A stretch of DNA of 64,000 bases, taken from positions 1-64,000 of the forward strand of contig CAIRMO010000135.1 in assembly GCA_903879705.1 (NCBI GenBank), in the 5' to 3' direction. A program made the translations under genes and the position numbers. Source of the stretch: an uncultured Candidatus Competibacteraceae bacterium (GTDB lineage Bacteria; Pseudomonadota; Gammaproteobacteria; Competibacterales; Competibacteraceae). Numbering within the stretch: the stretch's first letter is position 1; each line of letters starts with the position of its first letter. The notes under the pieces were generated by a model, which searched no databases, was not told the origin of the DNA, and was given only the letters and a program-made list of their open reading frames with translations. Positions 643 to 41,151 of this stretch are shown in pieces.

Positions 643-1000
643 CGGCTCGTTCTATCTGGTTGCCGATCAGCCGTGTGGCCCGGTGGCAATCCTTAATGCC
701 GGCGCGGTGCTGAATCAGGTTCTGAAATGGCTGCAATCCCGTCTGCAATATTCCTATAGCCGCGAAAGCGGGTATCCCGTTTTTCAGCGGCTGACTGGAT
801 TCCCGCATTCGCGGGAATGACGGAACCCGGGAGACCTAAATGTGAAAACCTGCTGGAAATTGGTATTATTCAATCAAGATAGCCCAACACGCTAAGGAGA
901 GCGAGAACAGGGGAACGCTTCGCGTTCCGCGCTATCCCTATCCCGCCCTAAAGGGCCTGCCCTCGCGAATGCAGGGGACGGGGTTTCTCGCACAATTCTG
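643..1000. other. Intergenic region without a gene, containing a palindromic repeat
   Basis: No reading frame with recognisable protein sequence is seen. The region holds a REP-like palindrome (761-823), a short hairpin around the gaacgcttcgcgttc sequence near 914-928, and a C/G-rich stretch before the response regulator. No convincing sigma70 promoter could be picked out. Confidence 0.5.
761..823. repeat. REP-like palindromic repeat, copy 1
   Basis: It has a left part, cgcgaaagcgggtatccc, and a right part with the inverted repeat tcccgcattcgcggga ending in atgacgg. The same two-part design recurs at 33026-33085 and 38764-38835, with single palindromes at 32972-33004 and 37071-37106. Confidence 0.8.
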
Positions 1001-33025: not shown

Positions 33026-33085
33026 TTGCGGGTATCCAGCCTTTTAAGCGAATGACTGGATTCCCGCTAATGCGGGAATGACGAA
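33026..33085. repeat. REP-like two-part repeat, copy 2b
   Basis: It has the left part ttgcgggtatccagcc and the right palindrome ttcccgctaatgcgggaa followed by tgacga. Together with copy 2a it sits between the last codons of the surface-protein gene and its detached C-terminal repeat. Confidence 0.85.
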
Positions 33086-33148: not shown

Positions 33149-36100
33149 TCACGGGTTTTTAAAACCATCCATCTTTACCACGCAGCTAGTAGGAGTTTGG
33201 CTGAAACATTGGCCTAACTTCCAGATGACTGGTGCTTTTGCGGTCAAAGTAACAACGGTATTAAGGGTATAGAATTTTTCACAGACGCTACCACAATTGA
33301 TTCCAGCCGGAACACTGGTTACGATTGCGGCTTTTGGGGTTACCTTCAATTTAGGCCGGAAAGCCGCTATGACTTTTTTAGCCGCCGTCATGCGTAATAC
33401 GCAAGATGGAGTGGTAGTTATGGCGCAATTACCACCCCAGTTAGCAAATTGCCAATTCAAATCCGTAGGCACGGCAGTCAAGGTAACAAGCTGGTCAAGT
33501 TTATAGGGTCTAGTGCAAGTAGCGGGACCACCGACGCAAGCAGGATATTCAGGAAGGGTGATTTTGCCTCCCTTACCTACAGTCACAGTCAAGATCGGCT
33601 TGAAAACAGCGGTGACGGTTTTGGCCCCATTCATGGGTATTTTGCATTGATTAGGAATATTAGGCACCGGCGTACAACCGACCCAACTGCCGAATGCAAA
33701 ACCAACCGATGGTGTAGCGGTGAGGATAACCTCAATGGCAGGATTCCTAAGGTCATAAAATTCAGTACAGTCAGTGCCGCAATTGATTCCAAGCGGGCTA
33801 CTGATTACGGTACCACTGCCAATTTTGACGACCTTCAGCATCGGCTTGAAAATAGCGATGACTGTTTTATCAGCAGCCATCGTTACCGTGCATCCAGTCA
33901 TACCAACACATGCTCCGCCCCATCCTGCAAATTGCCAGTCAGTAGCCGGAAAAACCGCAAGACTGACGATCATGCCGCTGGCAAAATTGGCGATGCAAAT
34001 CGTGCCGCAATTGATTCCGCTCGGATTGCTGACAACGACTCCATTACCGGTGCGATCCAAAATCAGCTTGTAAGTCTGCTCGACAATCGGGATGGTCTGC
34101 TCAACAGAATTATTGTCGATATTGTCGTCATTGACTGCCGCTGTGACCTGAGCGCTAATCGTGATTGAGCCTAATTGGTGAGGAGTCAATTTAAAAGTGA
34201 TGGTTCTATGAGCCTGCGCTGGTAAGGGGAAAGGGACAGGAGGGATGCCAGAGGCCGTATATTCCCCCCGGCAAGTCAGAATAGACATAACCCAAGGATC
34301 ACACGTTATATCTTGTTCTGGAGTCACTGCGCCCGGTGTAACAGTCGCAGGTAAAATCACCATGAACGCAATATTTGGTGCTGGTAAATTATCATTGCTG
34401 TCATTGTACGCAGTCAGAGTACACGTCATCGGTAGGTCAATAATAGCCGGTGAATCGCAGATCAAATGGAGCCGCACATCTACTGGCGCGGTCCCCAGTT
34501 TGGTGACGAAAGCATCCTTGCTACTGCCGTTGATAGTGTTATCGTGGGTACCGGGTGTCACTGGAAAATCGGAAGCCGAAGTTAACCCGGTCACATAAAC
34601 ACCGTAGATATGATGAAGGTTGTTAAAACCATCATCGAACGTCACATACCTGCCGGGAGGATCAATAGCGATGGCAGCGCCGCTATCAATGTTATTATTA
34701 CCTCCCAGATAAGTGGCATAAGCCAGTTGCGCTGAACCAATGGCGTCCATATTGATTTGTGCAACGAACGCATCCCGAGTTCCGCCCAGCGTTTTATCAA
34801 AAGCGCCAGCAGTGGCTGGAAATTTAGTGGAAGCCGTGGCTCCGGTTACATAGACATAATTTTCGCTATTCACTGAGTTATTAGCCAGAATAATCCTGGC
34901 GCCACTATCGGAATTTTCTCCACCCAAGTAAGTGGAATATTCCAGCGCACTACCAGTGGGATGAATTTTAGTGACAAAAGCATCCCCATTGCCGCCATAT
35001 GCTGTACCGAAAGCCCCGGAAGTGACCGGAAAATTGGTACTAGCGGTCCCGGTTACATAAGCATAGTATGCACTGTCCACGGTAATTCCAGCGCCACTGT
35101 CGGCACCTATTCCACCTAAATAGGTGGAATAAACCAGCGATGCATTGCCACCGGCAGGGTTGAATTTAGCAACGAAAGCATCAGTACTACCACTCAGCGT
35201 TTGATAAGCAGCGCCTGACGTATTCATATTAGTTGAAGCGGTAGAGCCAGTGATATAGATATTGCCTATAGTATCCACCGCAATTCCGGCACCCTTGTCA
35301 TCCTTGGTTCCTCCAAAGTAAGTCGAATACAACCGGCTCCAAGCAGCTGGTGCTGGAGGAGGAGGACTGTATTTGGTGACAAAAGCGTCAAAGCCACCGG
35401 CGAGTAACGGTTGATAGGGATTGGTCGTTGGAAAATTAGCATTTGGGTTAGTGCTAGAGTAAGTTGAATTTGTATAACCAGTTACATAAATATTTCCCGC
35501 CGCATCTACAGTAATATCAGTGCCACCTTCATCCTTGCTGCCGCCCAGAAGCGTGGTAGATAGCAGCAAACAGTCTCCTGGCTTATTCGGCTTAATCGAA
35601 ACAACAAAGGCGTCAGTCGAACCATTGACTACTGCTGGTGGCCCACCCATAGGGAATGTAGTAGAAGCGGTGGTTCCAGTGATGTAAAGCGTAGTAGTTC
35701 CATAATTTAGAAAATCTAGGGTAATTGCTGATGCAATATCATCTTTATCTCCAGTACCAGATATTAAACTAGAACATTCAAGAACAAAATTTTTATTAAA
35801 CCTTGAAATAAAAATATCCATTTTAGTATATGAAAGATCGCGGACACTACCAGGAAAATTGGCTGAAGCCGTTGCGCCAGTGACATAAGTAAAGCCGAGT
35901 TTATCTACAGCAATCCCGGTGGCATAATCATCGACCATGCCGCCCAAAAACGTCGAATGAGCCAGCACTGGATCAATCACCAAGGGTTGGCTGCGGTCAT
36001 AAACAGCAATCGCAAAACCAATTTCGGCAATTTTATTTTCTGCCTGAATATCGCTCGCCGACTCCGGCGCAGAACGCAGCACAAATTGCCCATCCACCGG

Positions 36101-36847
36101 TTGACGCCGGCCCGCGATGTCCTGATAAACCACCGGCTTGTGCCAACGCAGTTCGCCAACCGCCATTTTCAACAGCAAATCGCCGTTATCGGCCAGTGTT
36201 GCCTGCACGGCTTCATTCAGTCCGGCAAACTTGACCCGGATTTGCCCCGGATCCGCGCCCGGCGCGACCACAAAGTCGTATTCCAGTTGCCGCTGATTGC
36301 CGTAATAAATCAGATCAATGCCGGGATAAACGCCCTGTAGCTGCACCTTGCCATAAGTGGCGACGCCAATTTGCCATTGCTGGGGATCTTGCCCCCGGTA
36401 GTAATTGATCCGGCTTGGCAACGGATCCAAACCGCCGATTTCCGGTTGGGGATTGGCGTCAAGCAAACTCATCCGCAGTGCCGAAAATTTGACGGCTGCC
36501 GGATCCGATTCTGTAGGCGAAGATGCGCGGAGGTTGAACACCGCCTCATTAGGGGTAAGAAACAGCGTATAGCCCGGCCCACGCGAGAGAAACCGCACCT
36601 GCGCATCGGTCTGGCCCCGATTGGCTTCGAAGATCAGCGGCAGCTTGCCGTAAATGGTATTGGTGAGCGCCTTTGGGTCGTCAGCGGGTGCGGTAGCCGG
36701 GAGCGTCAAGGAAACGACGGCTGACGGTTGCGGAACCACCGCCTTCTCCGCCGCCAATATTCCTATCGCTAATGCCACCACGGCTAACAGACTGATCCAT
36801 AACGCCGTCCGGTTCCGCCCTTGATGTTCTGTGTGCGGGCTTTTCAT
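33149..36847 (-). CDS. Giant SBBP beta-propeller surface protein with InlB-like repeats (3' end broken)
   Basis: A 1232-aa exported protein. Residues 14-32 form a signal or anchor segment (LWISLLAVVALAIGILA). A DUF7948-like N-terminal domain (LIFEANRGQTDAQVRFLSRG) precedes about seven SBBP repeats with the pattern STYLGG...GAGIAVD...IYITG, consistent with a propeller. A DUF11-like domain follows, then four Cys-containing divergent InlB B-repeats (GINCGTDC, WGGAC). The last repeat stops short at KMDGFKNP, with a probable frameshift at an A/C run. The middle and 3' parts are clearly more AT-rich than neighbours, suggesting transfer. Function unknown; adhesion or matrix binding is a guess. Confidence 0.85.
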   Translation of the reverse strand: MKSPHTEHQGRNRTALWISLLAVVALAIGILAAEKAVVPQPSAVVSLTLPATAPADDPKALTNTIYGKLPLIFEANRGQTDAQVRFLSRGPGYTLFLTPNEAVFNLRASSPTESDPAAVKFSALRMSLLDANPQPEIGGLDPLPSRINYYRGQDPQQWQIGVATYGKVQLQGVYPGIDLIYYGNQRQLEYDFVVAPGADPGQIRVKFAGLNEAVQATLADNGDLLLKMAVGELRWHKPVVYQDIAGRRQPVDGQFVLRSAPESASDIQAENKIAEIGFAIAVYDRSQPLVIDPVLAHSTFLGGMVDDYATGIAVDKLGFTYVTGATASANFPGSVRDLSYTKMDIFISRFNKNFVLECSSLISGTGDKDDIASAITLDFLNYGTTTLYITGTTASTTFPMGGPPAVVNGSTDAFVVSIKPNKPGDCLLLSTTLLGGSKDEGGTDITVDAAGNIYVTGYTNSTYSSTNPNANFPTTNPYQPLLAGGFDAFVTKYSPPPPAPAAWSRLYSTYFGGTKDDKGAGIAVDTIGNIYITGSTASTNMNTSGAAYQTLSGSTDAFVAKFNPAGGNASLVYSTYLGGIGADSGAGITVDSAYYAYVTGTASTNFPVTSGAFGTAYGGNGDAFVTKIHPTGSALEYSTYLGGENSDSGARIILANNSVNSENYVYVTGATASTKFPATAGAFDKTLGGTRDAFVAQINMDAIGSAQLAYATYLGGNNNIDSGAAIAIDPPGRYVTFDDGFNNLHHIYGVYVTGLTSASDFPVTPGTHDNTINGSSKDAFVTKLGTAPVDVRLHLICDSPAIIDLPMTCTLTAYNDSNDNLPAPNIAFMVILPATVTPGAVTPEQDITCDPWVMSILTCRGEYTASGIPPVPFPLPAQAHRTITFKLTPHQLGSITISAQVTAAVNDDNIDNNSVEQTIPIVEQTYKLILDRTGNGVVVSNPSGINCGTICIANFASGMIVSLAVFPATDWQFAGWGGACVGMTGCTVTMAADKTVIAIFKPMLKVVKIGSGTVISSPLGINCGTDCTEFYDLRNPAIEVILTATPSVGFAFGSWVGCTPVPNIPNQCKIPMNGAKTVTAVFKPILTVTVGKGGKITLPEYPACVGGPATCTRPYKLDQLVTLTAVPTDLNWQFANWGGNCAITTTPSCVLRMTAAKKVIAAFRPKLKVTPKAAIVTSVPAGINCGSVCEKFYTLNTVVTLTAKAPVIWKLGQCFSQTPTSCVVKMDGFKNP

Positions 36848-37171
36848 GGTTTTTCTCCGTTAGTCTGAATTTCAAAGGGCCGTTGCACATAAAGTGCCAC
36901 ACCTGGATTAGGACACAAATAATCACAGCCCAACGATGGGCAATCGCGGACGTATGGGTATTGTTTGATGCGGGAGGGAGCGATACGCCCTCCCTTAGAT
37001 GGAGAGGGCTGGAGGTCACTGCTACTCAATTAAGGGAGCGATGCTTGATCCATAACGCCCAAGCTTTGTTTTCCGTCATTCCCGCATCCGTGGGAATGAC
37101 GGAAAAAGTGGACAACCCAACGTCCTGAATCCTTAACTTAATGGCAGTCGGGCTGGAGATGCAAACGATGA
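36848..37171. other. Intergenic region with palindrome
   Basis: It contains the REP-like palindrome at 37071-37106. Otherwise no gene is seen. The region upstream of the surface-protein gene start (36850-36990) has no clear promoter. Confidence 0.5.
37071..37106. repeat. REP-like palindrome, copy 3
   Basis: A nearly perfect palindrome, ttccgtcattcccgcatccg with tgggaatgacggaaaa. Only the single hairpin is present, extended by the arms ttccgtc/gacggaa. It lies downstream of the fumarase gene and could end transcription. Confidence 0.85.
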
Positions 37172-38686
37172 CTAAGCCGCAACCACCGGAATTTTGCCGA
37201 TCTTGATTTGCCACTCGCGCGGTCCAGTCTTGTGGACGCTGGAACCCTTGGAATCGACTGCCACCGTCACCGGCATATCCTTGACGTCAAATTCATAAAT
37301 CGCTTCCATGCCCAAATCCTCGAACGCCAGCACCCGCGCCGCCTTAATCGCCTTCGACACCAGATAAGCGGCACCGCCCACCGCCATTAAATACACCGCC
37401 CGGTTATCCTTAATGGCGTCAATGGCGACATCGCCGCGCTCAGACTTGCCGATCATGCCCAGCAGGCCGGTTTGTTCCAGCATTTGCCGAGTGAATTTGT
37501 CCATCCGGGTCGCGGTCGTCGGACCGGCGGGGCCGACCACCTCATCGCGCACCGGATCGACCGGCCCAACGTAATAGATAAAACGTCCGGTGAAATCCAC
37601 CGGCAGTTTCTGCCCAGCAGTCAGCATATCGGTCATCCGCTTATGCGCGGCGTCGCGCCCAGTCAGCATCTTGCCATTGAGCAGCAGCACTTCGCCCGGC
37701 TTCCAGTTCGCCACGTCGGCGCGGGTCACAGTGGCCAAATCGACCCGGCGGGCATTGGTCGGGGCGTAGGTTAGCTTCGGCCAGTCGTCCAGATTCGGCG
37801 GTTCGAGTTTAGCTGGCCCGGTCCCGTCAAGATGGAAATGGACATGGCGGGTCGCGGCGCAGTTCGGCACCAGTGCAATCGGCAGATTGGCGGCGTGGGT
37901 CGGGTAATCCAGCACCTTCACATCCAGCACCGTGGTCAGCCCGCCCAACCCTTGAGCGCCAATCCCCAGCGCGTTGACCTTCTCGTAAAGTTCGATCCGC
38001 AATTCTTCAGCGCGATTGTTGGGGCCACGGGCGATCAGGTCCTGAATATCCACCGGAGCCATCAACGATTCCTTGGCCAGCAACAAGGCCTTTTCTGGAG
38101 TGCCGCCAATGCCGATCCCAAGAATGCCCGGCGGACACCAGCCTGCGCCCATGGTCGGCACGGTCTTTAACACCCATTCAACCAGATTGTCGGACGGGTT
38201 CAGCATGGCGAATTTAGACTTGGCTTCGGACCCGCCGCCTTTGGCCGCGCAAATCACTTCGAGATGGTGACCGGGGACGATTTCGTAATGCACCACCGCC
38301 GGAGTGTTGTCCTTGCTGTTCTGGCGCTTGCCCGCCGGATCAAGCAGCACCGAGGCCCGCAGCTTGTTGTCAGGATTGAGATAGGCGCGGCGCACCCCCT
38401 CGTTGACCATTTCCTGCACACTCAAGGTCGTGTTCCAATGCACCTCCATGCCGACTTTCAGGAACACCAGTGCGATGCCGGTATCCTGGCAAATCGGCCG
38501 GTGGCCTTCGGCGCACATCCGCGAGTTGATCAGGATTTGGGCGATGGCGTCTTTAGCCGCCGGCGACTGTTCGCGCTCATAAGCCGCCGCCAATGCCTTG
38601 ATATAGTCAACCGGGTGGTAATAACTGATGTACTGGAAGGCATCGGCGATGCTCTGAATAAAGTCTTCCTGGCGAATGGTGGTCAT
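37172..38686 (-). CDS. Class I (4Fe-4S) fumarate hydratase
   Basis: A 504-aa single-chain class I fumarase that interconverts fumarate and malate. The alpha part has MCAEGHRPICQDTGIALVF, GWCPPGILGIGIGGTPEKA and VPNCAATRHVHFHLDGTGP, whose Cys residues bind the cluster. The beta part has GEVLLLNGKMLTGRDAAHKR, FIYYVGPVDPVRDEVVGPAGP and a C-terminal DSKGSSVHKTGPREWQ. Such enzymes are sensitive to superoxide. A heptamer array lies 24 nt before the ATG. Confidence 0.93.
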   Translation of the reverse strand: MTTIRQEDFIQSIADAFQYISYYHPVDYIKALAAAYEREQSPAAKDAIAQILINSRMCAEGHRPICQDTGIALVFLKVGMEVHWNTTLSVQEMVNEGVRRAYLNPDNKLRASVLLDPAGKRQNSKDNTPAVVHYEIVPGHHLEVICAAKGGGSEAKSKFAMLNPSDNLVEWVLKTVPTMGAGWCPPGILGIGIGGTPEKALLLAKESLMAPVDIQDLIARGPNNRAEELRIELYEKVNALGIGAQGLGGLTTVLDVKVLDYPTHAANLPIALVPNCAATRHVHFHLDGTGPAKLEPPNLDDWPKLTYAPTNARRVDLATVTRADVANWKPGEVLLLNGKMLTGRDAAHKRMTDMLTAGQKLPVDFTGRFIYYVGPVDPVRDEVVGPAGPTTATRMDKFTRQMLEQTGLLGMIGKSERGDVAIDAIKDNRAVYLMAVGGAAYLVSKAIKAARVLAFEDLGMEAIYEFDVKDMPVTVAVDSKGSSVHKTGPREWQIKIGKIPVVAA

Positions 38687-38763: not shown

Positions 38764-38835
38764 CGTCATACTCGCGAAAGCGGGTATCCAGCCTCTCAGC
38801 GAATGACTGGATTCCCGGTTACGCGGGAATGACGA
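38764..38835. repeat. REP-like two-part repeat, copy 4
   Basis: The left part is cgcgaaagcgggtatccagc and the right palindrome is ttcccggttacgcgggaatg ending acga, joined by cctctcagcgaatgactgg. It lies between the EncFtn gene and the fumarase leader. Confidence 0.85.
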
Positions 38836-38849
38836 ATTAAGGGCTGCCG

Positions 38850-39146
38850 CTAGTCGTGGCCGTAGTGGGCAATGGGCTGGTCGGTAAACAGATAATTTCG
38901 CAACTCGTTATCAAAAGCCGGATCTTGTCGGCGAATCCACTCCAGCACCATTGCTGCATGTTCTTTTTCCTCGTCCCGGTTGTGGGCGAGAATGGCTTTC
39001 AACTCCTGGCTTTTGCAAGCGTTTACCCGCTGGTTATACCCGTCCACCGCTTCCAGTTCTTCCATCAGGGAAATGATCGCCCGGTGCATGTCGCGGGTTT
39101 GATCGGACAGTTCATTGATCGGCTCGTGATAGCCTTCATGCGCCAT
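38850..39146 (-). CDS. Encapsulated ferritin-like (EncFtn) protein without encapsulin
   Basis: A 98-aa two-helix protein. MHRAIISLMEELEAVDGYNQR followed by LAHNRDEEKEHAAMVLEWIRR is the signature of encapsulated ferritins, the ferroxidases stored inside encapsulin shells. By alignment with the Rhodospirillum rubrum protein the iron ligands are Glu30, Glu60 and His63; the second-sphere Trp is Gly36. The protein stops at FTDQPIAHYGHD and lacks the C-terminal targeting extension that docks EncFtn in the shell. No encapsulin gene is in the window. It probably oxidises iron as a free decamer or needs a distant shell. Confidence 0.85.
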   Translation of the reverse strand: MAHEGYHEPINELSDQTRDMHRAIISLMEELEAVDGYNQRVNACKSQELKAILAHNRDEEKEHAAMVLEWIRRQDPAFDNELRNYLFTDQPIAHYGHD

Positions 39147-39200
39147 TTGCGGTTCTCCTCGGTTGGGTTGCTGATTGAGAATCTGGAAAAAACGAATGCG

Positions 39201-39908
39201 TCAAAGCTCCGGGTTTAACACGCCATCGGCCAGTCGCCAGACCGCTTCCATCCGCGCCGCCAACGCGGAATCGTGGGTGACCACCACAAAACTGGTGCCC
39301 AGCGCACGGTTCAGCTCCAGCATCTGTTCAAAAACCTGTTCAGCGCTGTAGCGGTCAAGATTGCCGGTCGGTTCGTCGGCGAGTACGCACGCCGGTTCCG
39401 TAATCAGCGCCCGCGCCACTGCCGCCCGTTGCCGTTCGCCGCCCGACAATTCGCCCGGCTTGTGGGTTAGCCGCTGTTTCAGACCGACCCGATCCAGCAG
39501 TTCCGCTGCCCGCATCGCCGCCTGCGCCGGAGCTTCGCCGCGAATCAGCAACGGCATCGCCACATTTTCCAGCGCGGTAAATTCCGGCAGCAGATGATGA
39601 AACTGGTAAATAAATCCCAACTTGCGGTTGCGCAATCGGCCCCGGCCAGTATCGCTCATCCGGCTCAGTTCCTGCCCGGCCACCCACACCGAACCAGCGC
39701 TCGGCGTATCCAGCCCACCCAGCAGGTGCAGCAGGGTACTTTTGCCCGATCCGGAACTGCCGATGATCGCCAGCCGTTGGCCGCGCTGCACCTGAAAATT
39801 CACTTCCCGCAATACCTCCAGCCGTTCGCTGCCTTCGCGGAACGATTTGGCCAGTCCCCGGCATTCCAGCACGGTTTCGGCAGTGGCTACTTCGGCCTCG
39901 CTATTCAT
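39201..39908 (-). CDS. lolD: Lipoprotein-releasing ABC transporter ATPase LolD
   Basis: A 235-aa ATPase from the ATG at 39908 ([19 protein letters not shown]). Walker [10 protein letters not shown], signature [15 protein letters not shown] and Walker [13 protein letters not shown] are intact; [21 protein letters not shown] is the LolD type of Q-loop region. LolCDE releases lipoproteins from the inner membrane to LolA. The start overlaps the lolC stop by 8 nt. Confidence 0.94.
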
Positions 39909-41151
39909 AACGGAGCGCCTCCGCGGGCTGGGTTCGGGCCGCCCGCCAAGCCGGATAGAGGGTCGCCAGCGTCGCCAGCCCGAACGCCACCAAGCCGATG
40001 GTCGAGACATCGCCCCATTGCACCTGCGCCGGCAAGTCGCTGATCAAATACACATCCGGGGCCAGAAATTTGATACCAAACGTCCGTTCGATGAACGGCA
40101 CCACCACGTCCACATGCGTGGCCAGCGACACCCCGCCGATCAGGCCCAGCAGCGTTCCCACCAAACCGATAGTGATGCCCTGGACGATGAAGATGCCCAT
40201 GATGCTGAGCGGCGTTGCGCCCAAGGTGCGCAGGATGGCGATGTCGGCCTGCTTGTCGGTGACCACCATGACCAGCGCCGAGACGATATTGAATGCCGCC
40301 ACCGCCACGATCAGGGTCAGGATCACGAACATCGCGGTCTTTTCGATCTGCACTGCCCGGAAAAAGCTGGCGTGATCCTGGGTCCAGTCACGGGCGGAGT
40401 AGCCCTCTGGCAACTGGTTGGCGAGGTCGCGGGCCAGGCGCGGAGCCTGAAACAGATCGCGCATTTTCAGCCGCACCCCGCTGACCACGCCTTCGGGAAG
40501 CTGGAACAGTTTGCCAGCGTCGGCGACATGAACCAAAGCCAACCCCCGGTCGTATTCGTACATCCCGGCCTCGAAAATGCCCACCACATCGAACCGCTTG
40601 AGCCTGGGCAACACCCCCGCCGGCGTCACGGTGGTCTGCGGGGTGATGACGGTCAGCTTGTCGCCCACCCGCACCGCCAGCGCATTGGCCAGGGCCTTGC
40701 CGAGGATGACGCTAAATCCGCCAGGCCGCAGATCTGTCAGTGACCCTTGAATCATCTTGCCGCCGATGTCGGAAACCTGCTGCTCCTCCTGCGGCAGGAT
40801 GCCTTGCACCAGCGCGCCGCTGACCAGTGAAGCATGGTTGAGCATGGCTTCGCCGCGAATAAAGGGCGCGCCGCCTTGGACGTCGGGATGGCGCATGGCC
40901 TGGTCGCGCACCGCCTGCCAATCCTCCACCAGCCCGTTCCAGTGATTGATAGTGGCGTGAGCGGTCATGGACAGGATCCGCCCGCGCAGTTCCTGCTGAA
41001 AGCCGTTCATCACCGACAGCACCGTGATCAACGCGGTGATGCCGAGCGCAATGCCCAGCATTGAGGTCAGGGAAATGAAGGAAATGAAATGGTTGCGGCG
41101 TTTAGCGCGGGTGTAGCGCAGGCCGATGAACAGTTCCAGAGGACGAAACAT
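39901..41151 (-). CDS. lolC: Lipoprotein-releasing permease LolC/LolE
   Basis: A 416-aa permease with an N-terminal membrane helix ([22 protein letters not shown]), a large periplasmic MacB/LolC domain and three C-terminal helices. The family start [20 protein letters not shown] is clear. Only one permease gene is present; a single LolF-like permease can form a homodimer with LolD in lineages without separate LolC and LolE, so that may be the case here. Confidence 0.92.

What the first reader, a model, noticed from the sequence alone, without database searches (positions are those of the whole stretch)
38850..39146. EncFtn ferroxidase without encapsulin and without a targeting tail
Seen: a 98-aa protein with intact iron ligands (Glu30, Glu60, His63), ending right after the second helix region, and no shell gene nearby. 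Known: encapsulated ferritins normally carry a C-terminal docking peptide and sit beside the encapsulin gene, because the open decamer cannot store iron by itself. Inference: it may have a free, storage-independent role or use another compartment. The Trp to Gly change near the iron entry (Gly36) could alter activity.
Basis: partly seen in the sequence, partly recalled or inferred. Interest (0 to 1): 0.6.

Follow-up and report, generated by a model that had tools for sequence, protein, structure and literature searches.

The report
Shell-less, tailless encapsulated-ferritin relative
A small iron-oxidising protein that normally works inside a protein shell is made here without shell or docking tail; this turns out to be the commonest form in its bacterial class, and its gene neighbours elsewhere suggest a job in peroxide defence rather than iron storage in a shell.

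Summary
Confirmed: window 38850-39146, MINUS strand, encodes an intact 98-aa EncFtn (PF22277, 143 bits) with iron ligands E30, E60, H63, no targeting peptide, and no encapsulin found in its Competibacteraceae-like (Gammaproteobacteria) genome. It is ordinary rather than exceptional. In 369 genomes of the class, 98 carry a full-length EncFtn and only 19 an encapsulin. Proteins split into tailless (0-9 aa beyond residue 94) and tailed (20 aa or more). Tailed forms sit beside encapsulin, with one exception (G074). The tailless kind is already named (s-FLP / Non-EncFtn) and has a solved relative, N. europaea NE0167 (3k6c). Not found in the papers searched: tailless EncFtn genes repeatedly sit in tight same-strand clusters with peroxide-defence genes (rubrerythrin-RFO-DUF3501, peroxiredoxin plus reductase, catalase) in 31 of 155 loci, 0 of 20 tailed loci, and co-occur with DUF3501 (odds ratio 4.5; 7.3 at one genome per family). 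Best explanation: a free decameric ferroxidase that removes Fe(II), perhaps with peroxide, in oxidative-stress defence; inferred, not assayed. This genome itself lacks that operon, rubrerythrin and any PF00210 ferritin. Trp36Gly is in the assembly and private to this genome. A free role is favoured; another compartment is not.

The parts
38850..39146 (-). Tailless EncFtn (s-FLP) gene, 98 aa, stop codon 38850-38852
   Evidence: ORF; PF22277 143 bits; TIGR04535 over cut-off; best solved relative 3k6c, 3e-48; model matches 3k6c and 5da5
39154..39159 (-). Shine-Dalgarno AGGAGA, 7 nt before the ATG
   Evidence: sequence
39057..39059 (-). Codon of Glu30, di-iron ligand (Rru Glu32)
   Evidence: aligned with R. 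rubrum EncFtn; ligand role from PMC5012862; invariant in 177 relatives
39039..39041 (-). Codon of Gly36 (GGG); Trp (TGG) in the sister genome, Trp in almost all relatives
38967..38969 (-). Codon of Glu60, di-iron ligand (Rru Glu62)
38958..38960 (-). Codon of His63, di-iron ligand (Rru His65)
39201..40010 (-). lolD, lipoprotein-release ATPase; same strand, 54 bp upstream; also upstream in the sister genome, so possibly co-transcribed
   Evidence: TIGR02211 328 bits; synteny in G068
37172..38686 (-). Class I (Fe-S) fumarate hydratase, same strand, 163 bp downstream; same neighbour in the sister genome
   Evidence: TIGR00722 and TIGR00723 over cut-off

Best explanation
It is a short ferritin-like protein (s-FLP): an EncFtn without the cargo tail that works free in the cytoplasm. 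Shown here: intact ligand set, no tail, no encapsulin, purifying selection, and operon links of its relatives. Inferred: as in 3k6c, ten subunits form an open ring with a di-iron site at each subunit interface; Fe(II) enters through the E29/E32 gateway and is oxidised there by O2 or, more likely in this setting, by H2O2. That removes the two Fenton reactants without storing a mineral; Fe(III) is passed on or released. The relatives' place in rubrerythrin-RFO-DUF3501, peroxiredoxin-reductase and catalase gene clusters suggests the job is peroxide and iron stress defence. In this genome, which lacks detectable ferritin, rubrerythrin and DUF3501, it may be the main protein of this kind, beside lolD and an Fe-S fumarase of an oxidant-sensitive type.
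For: Tailless form and encapsulin are uncoupled: 79 of 98 EncFtn genomes have no encapsulin, while all 19 encapsulin genomes have a tailed EncFtn. Four genomes hold both forms at separate places. The tail label changes about 5 times on the tree (at least 3 forced by starred branches), and two tailless proteins (L159, L181) fall among tailed ones in genomes without encapsulin. Immediate same-strand neighbours: Fe-S CCG protein 17, DUF3501 14, AhpC/Redoxin 6, catalase 3, pyridine-nucleotide-disulphide reductase 3 of 140; none of these is in the top 25 of the control of 150 ORFs further out, whose highest count is 2. 31 of 155 tailless loci against 0 of 20 tailed have such a partner at +-1. Co-occurrence with DUF3501: 59/83 against 101/286, p 8.5e-9; one genome per family 29/37 against 40/120, p 2.6e-6. 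No dependence on PF00210 ferritin (odds ratio 1.0).
Against: No activity or phenotype was measured. The window's own neighbours (lolD, fumarase) are not peroxide-defence genes, and its genome lacks DUF3501 and rubrerythrin, so the role is transferred from relatives. About 80% of tailless loci have no such partner at +-1. Fisher tests are not fully corrected for phylogeny. Gly36 could reduce activity in this one protein.
Confidence: 0.6

Rival explanations
1. It is a cytoplasmic iron-handling protein (Fe(II) oxidation and hand-over, or buffering), with no special tie to peroxide; the operon links reflect general iron homeostasis.
For: Complete ferroxidase ligand set; encapsulated relatives oxidise iron without a shell but do not store it (PMC11202242); no ferritin in this genome.
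Against: Recurrent partners are peroxidases and their reductases, not iron uptake or Fe-S assembly genes; presence is independent of ferritin presence across the class.
Confidence: 0.25
2. It is a cargo after all: the short C-terminus is an undefined docking peptide for a shell not recognised here, an open question raised in PMC11202242.
For: s-FLP could sterically fit a shell (PMC11202242); the family-2 shell search was uninformative.
Against: No PF04454 or PF05065 protein in a genome estimated 100% complete; 112 of 177 distinct proteins have a single residue after position 94; where encapsulin exists the EncFtn beside it has a tail of 20 aa or more, most ending in a GSL- or IG-type motif.
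Confidence: 0.05
3. In this genome the protein is impaired: Trp36Gly, next to Tyr37 of the di-iron site, reduces activity and the gene is on the way out.
For: Trp36 is in 155 of 157 tailless relatives and in every relative of the window's family examined; one transversion TGG to GGG.
Against: dN/dS about 0.11 against the sister, like lolD beside it; all ligands kept; 3k6c carries Leu at this place and still forms decamers (PMC11202242).
Confidence: 0.1

Closest known systems
s-FLP / Non-EncFtn, N. europaea NE0167 (PDB 3k6c)
   Same: Tailless, about 95 aa, same ligands; residues 1-94 align (E 3e-48); top fold match at 83% identity over the aligned columns
   Different: Leu instead of Gly at position 36; here four extra residues YGHD at the end; different organism
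EncFtn with targeting peptide, R. rubrum Rru_A0973 (5da5), H. ochraceum (5n5f)
   Same: Core fold and di-iron site
   Different: Those carry a disordered tail with a docking peptide and work inside encapsulin; here both are absent
Dps
   Same: Proposed role: removing Fe(II) with H2O2 to prevent Fenton chemistry (general knowledge)
   Different: No PF00210 match here; Dps is a closed 12-mer that stores iron, EncFtn is an open ring
Aerobic-type rubrerythrin operon RBR-RFO-DUF3501 (PMC5114695)
   Same: Tailless EncFtn lies between RFO and DUF3501 in 13 loci
   Different: The text of the paper does not mention encapsulin or EncFtn; the window genome lacks this operon

Membership tests
EncFtn-like (PF22277 / TIGR04535) | Profile match over the curated cut-off across the domain | tested here: met
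   143 bits against 27 and 134 against 125
EncFtn-like (PF22277 / TIGR04535) | Di-iron ligands Glu, Glu-X-X-His and Tyr | tested here: met
   E30, Y37, E60, H63 present and invariant in 177 relatives
EncFtn-like (PF22277 / TIGR04535) | Helix-hairpin fold with short third helix | tested here: met
   model helices 15-43, 47-74, 76-87; best fold match 3k6c
EncFtn-like (PF22277 / TIGR04535) | Decamer with ferroxidase activity | not testable with these tools
   decamer known for 3k6c (PMC11202242); needs purified protein
Encapsulin cargo (FLP-TP) | C-terminal targeting peptide | tested here: not met
   ends PIAHYGHD; no extension in any downstream frame
Encapsulin cargo (FLP-TP) | Encapsulin gene in the genome, usually adjacent | tested here: not met
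   PF04454 absent, controls ring
s-FLP (short EncFtn) | EncFtn core without long disordered C-terminus or apparent targeting peptide | tested here: met
   98 aa, 4 residues beyond position 94
Classical ferritin / Bfr / Dps (PF00210) | PF00210 match | tested here: not met
   not among the Pfam hits up to E 1
Peroxide-defence operon partner | Tight same-strand linkage to rubrerythrin-RFO-DUF3501, peroxiredoxin or catalase | tested here: not met
   met in 31 of 155 relatives' loci but not in the window, whose neighbours are lolD and fumarase

The most novel reading that the evidence does not exclude
Tailless EncFtn is a distinct functional class: a free ring-shaped ferroxidase or peroxidase of bacterial H2O2 defence, and an overlooked component of the aerobic rubrerythrin-RFO-DUF3501 system, from or to which encapsulated EncFtn has switched several times by gain or loss of tail and shell together.
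Probability: 0.45. Interest if true: 0.6.

Novelty: new member of a known kind. Interest (0 to 1): 0.35.

Why it matters
Reviews leave open whether short EncFtn proteins are encapsulated by an unknown signal (PMC11202242). The class-wide separation of tail and shell argues that they are not, and the operon links give a testable function for a protein family named after a shell that most of its members in this class do without. The annotation 'encapsulin-associated ferritin-like protein' (TIGR04535) is misleading for these proteins.

Tried and rejected
A missed frame adding a targeting peptide: rejected (sister ends alike). Encapsulin elsewhere: none. Another HK97 shell: PF05065 none; PF19307 uninformative because its controls were silent. 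Replacement of classical ferritin: rejected as a class-wide rule, since tailless EncFtn is independent of PF00210 (odds ratio 1.0), although this genome itself lacks PF00210. A promoter in the 54 bp after lolD: none found by consensus scan, which proves little. The first genome search used the wrong strand and was repeated. One alignment failed on a wrong coordinate and was redone. The neighbour at L126 -1 grouped with rubrerythrin by BLAST but had no Pfam hit in the stretch given, so that one assignment is doubtful.

Full report
Observation. The gene lies on the minus strand at 38850-39146, with a good ribosome site. It is an EncFtn by Pfam and NCBIfam models. Its best solved relative is N. 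europaea NE0167, 3k6c, itself tailless. The AlphaFold model (pLDDT 84, only 32 sequences) has three helices and matches 3k6c first, then R. rubrum EncFtn. So the protein ends after the third short helix, not the second. The iron ligands are intact. There is no targeting peptide in frame or in other frames.

Shell. The window lies in a 3.62 Mb, 148-contig genome estimated 100% complete. By its nearest named relatives it is Competibacteraceae-like, Gammaproteobacteria. It has no encapsulin, no HK97 phage capsid and no second EncFtn. It also has no PF00210 ferritin, bacterioferritin or Dps, no rubrerythrin and no DUF3501. The sister G068 has two PF00210 matches. Absence in a draft assembly is not proof.

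How unusual is it? In 369 genomes of the class, 98 have a full-length EncFtn match (E under 1e-20) and 19 have encapsulin; all 19 are among the 98. From 190 loci I took 177 distinct EncFtn proteins. Tail length beyond residue 94 is bimodal: 0-9 residues in 157, 20 or more in 20. The tailed ones belong to the 19 encapsulin genomes plus G074 (L150), which has a Lys/Pro/Ala tail and no encapsulin; one tailed case (L188) is in one frame with encapsulin sequence. Genomes G014, G196, G236 and G247 hold a tailed copy at the encapsulin and a tailless copy elsewhere. On a tree of 131 proteins (94 columns, weakly resolved, bootstrap not settled) the label needs about 5 changes, at least 3 forced. Tail and shell therefore come and go together. 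The tailless group is known as Non-EncFtn (PMC5012862) or s-FLP (PMC11202242). That review asks whether the short end hides a docking signal; the data here argue that it does not.

Function. I collected the immediate same-strand neighbours (gap up to 150 bp) of tailless genes and, as control, ORFs three or four places away in the same loci. Pfam counts: CCG Fe-S protein 17, DUF3501 14, AhpC/Redoxin 6, catalase 3, disulphide reductase 3 of 140; in the control of 150 no family exceeds 2 and none of these appears among the 25 listed. In 13 loci the order is RFO - EncFtn - DUF3501, mostly with rubrerythrin upstream where the locus reaches that far (rubrerythrin checked). Gaps are often under 60 bp. 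Other loci have AhpC - EncFtn - thioredoxin reductase, EncFtn - peroxiredoxin - glutathione-reductase-like, or catalase - EncFtn. In all, 31 of 155 tailless and 0 of 20 tailed loci have such a partner. The 31 come from clusters chosen after seeing the neighbours, so the unbiased Pfam comparison is the better evidence. Tailless EncFtn co-occurs with DUF3501 across genomes (odds ratio 4.5; 7.25 at one genome per family). The rubrerythrin-RFO-DUF3501 cluster is a described oxidative-stress system (PMC5114695). That paper does not name EncFtn, though its Figure 3 marks unnamed hypothetical proteins. I found no paper linking the two in the searches made, which cover open-licence papers only.

Window gene. 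Its neighbours are lolD (54 bp upstream) and class I fumarase (163 bp downstream); among the loci compared only the sister genome shares this pair. The peroxide link is therefore by family, not by its own operon. dN/dS against the sister is about 0.11, close to lolD's 0.14, so the gene is maintained. Trp36 to Gly is one base change (GGG for TGG), absent in the relatives of its family examined. Tyr37 beside it belongs to the di-iron site by analogy with Rru Tyr39 (PMC5012862). The effect is unknown.

Verdict. It is a member of a known kind. The broader pattern, a free form tied to peroxide defence, is the part worth following.

Noticed in passing
window 799-818, 33060-33079, 37078-37097, 38811-38830: Four copies of ATTCCC-N8-GGGAAT, a dispersed palindromic repeat resembling the Neisseria dRS3 element (from memory); 0.28 expected by chance. 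One lies just downstream of the EncFtn gene.
   Followed up: partly
L150 (G074): EncFtn with a 28-residue Lys/Pro/Ala-rich tail without a docking motif, in a genome without encapsulin; perhaps a nucleic-acid-binding tail.
   Followed up: no
L143, L077, L119, L125, L127, L129, L156, L160: Rubrerythrin - Fe-S oxidoreductase - tailless EncFtn - DUF3501 gene clusters.
   Followed up: yes
L130, L192, L196, L193, L194, L201, L208 and the window gene: Competibacteraceae tailless EncFtn often end in His-rich HGHx (YGHD in the window), a possible metal-binding end.
   Followed up: no
L188 (G196): EncFtn and encapsulin sequence in one open frame, with Ser at position 36.
   Followed up: no
window genome G000: No PF00210 ferritin, no rubrerythrin and no encapsulin found in a genome rated 100% complete.
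   Followed up: partly
window 33149-36847, minus: 1232-aa protein with a weak SBBP beta-propeller match (NF047494, under its cut-off).
   Followed up: no
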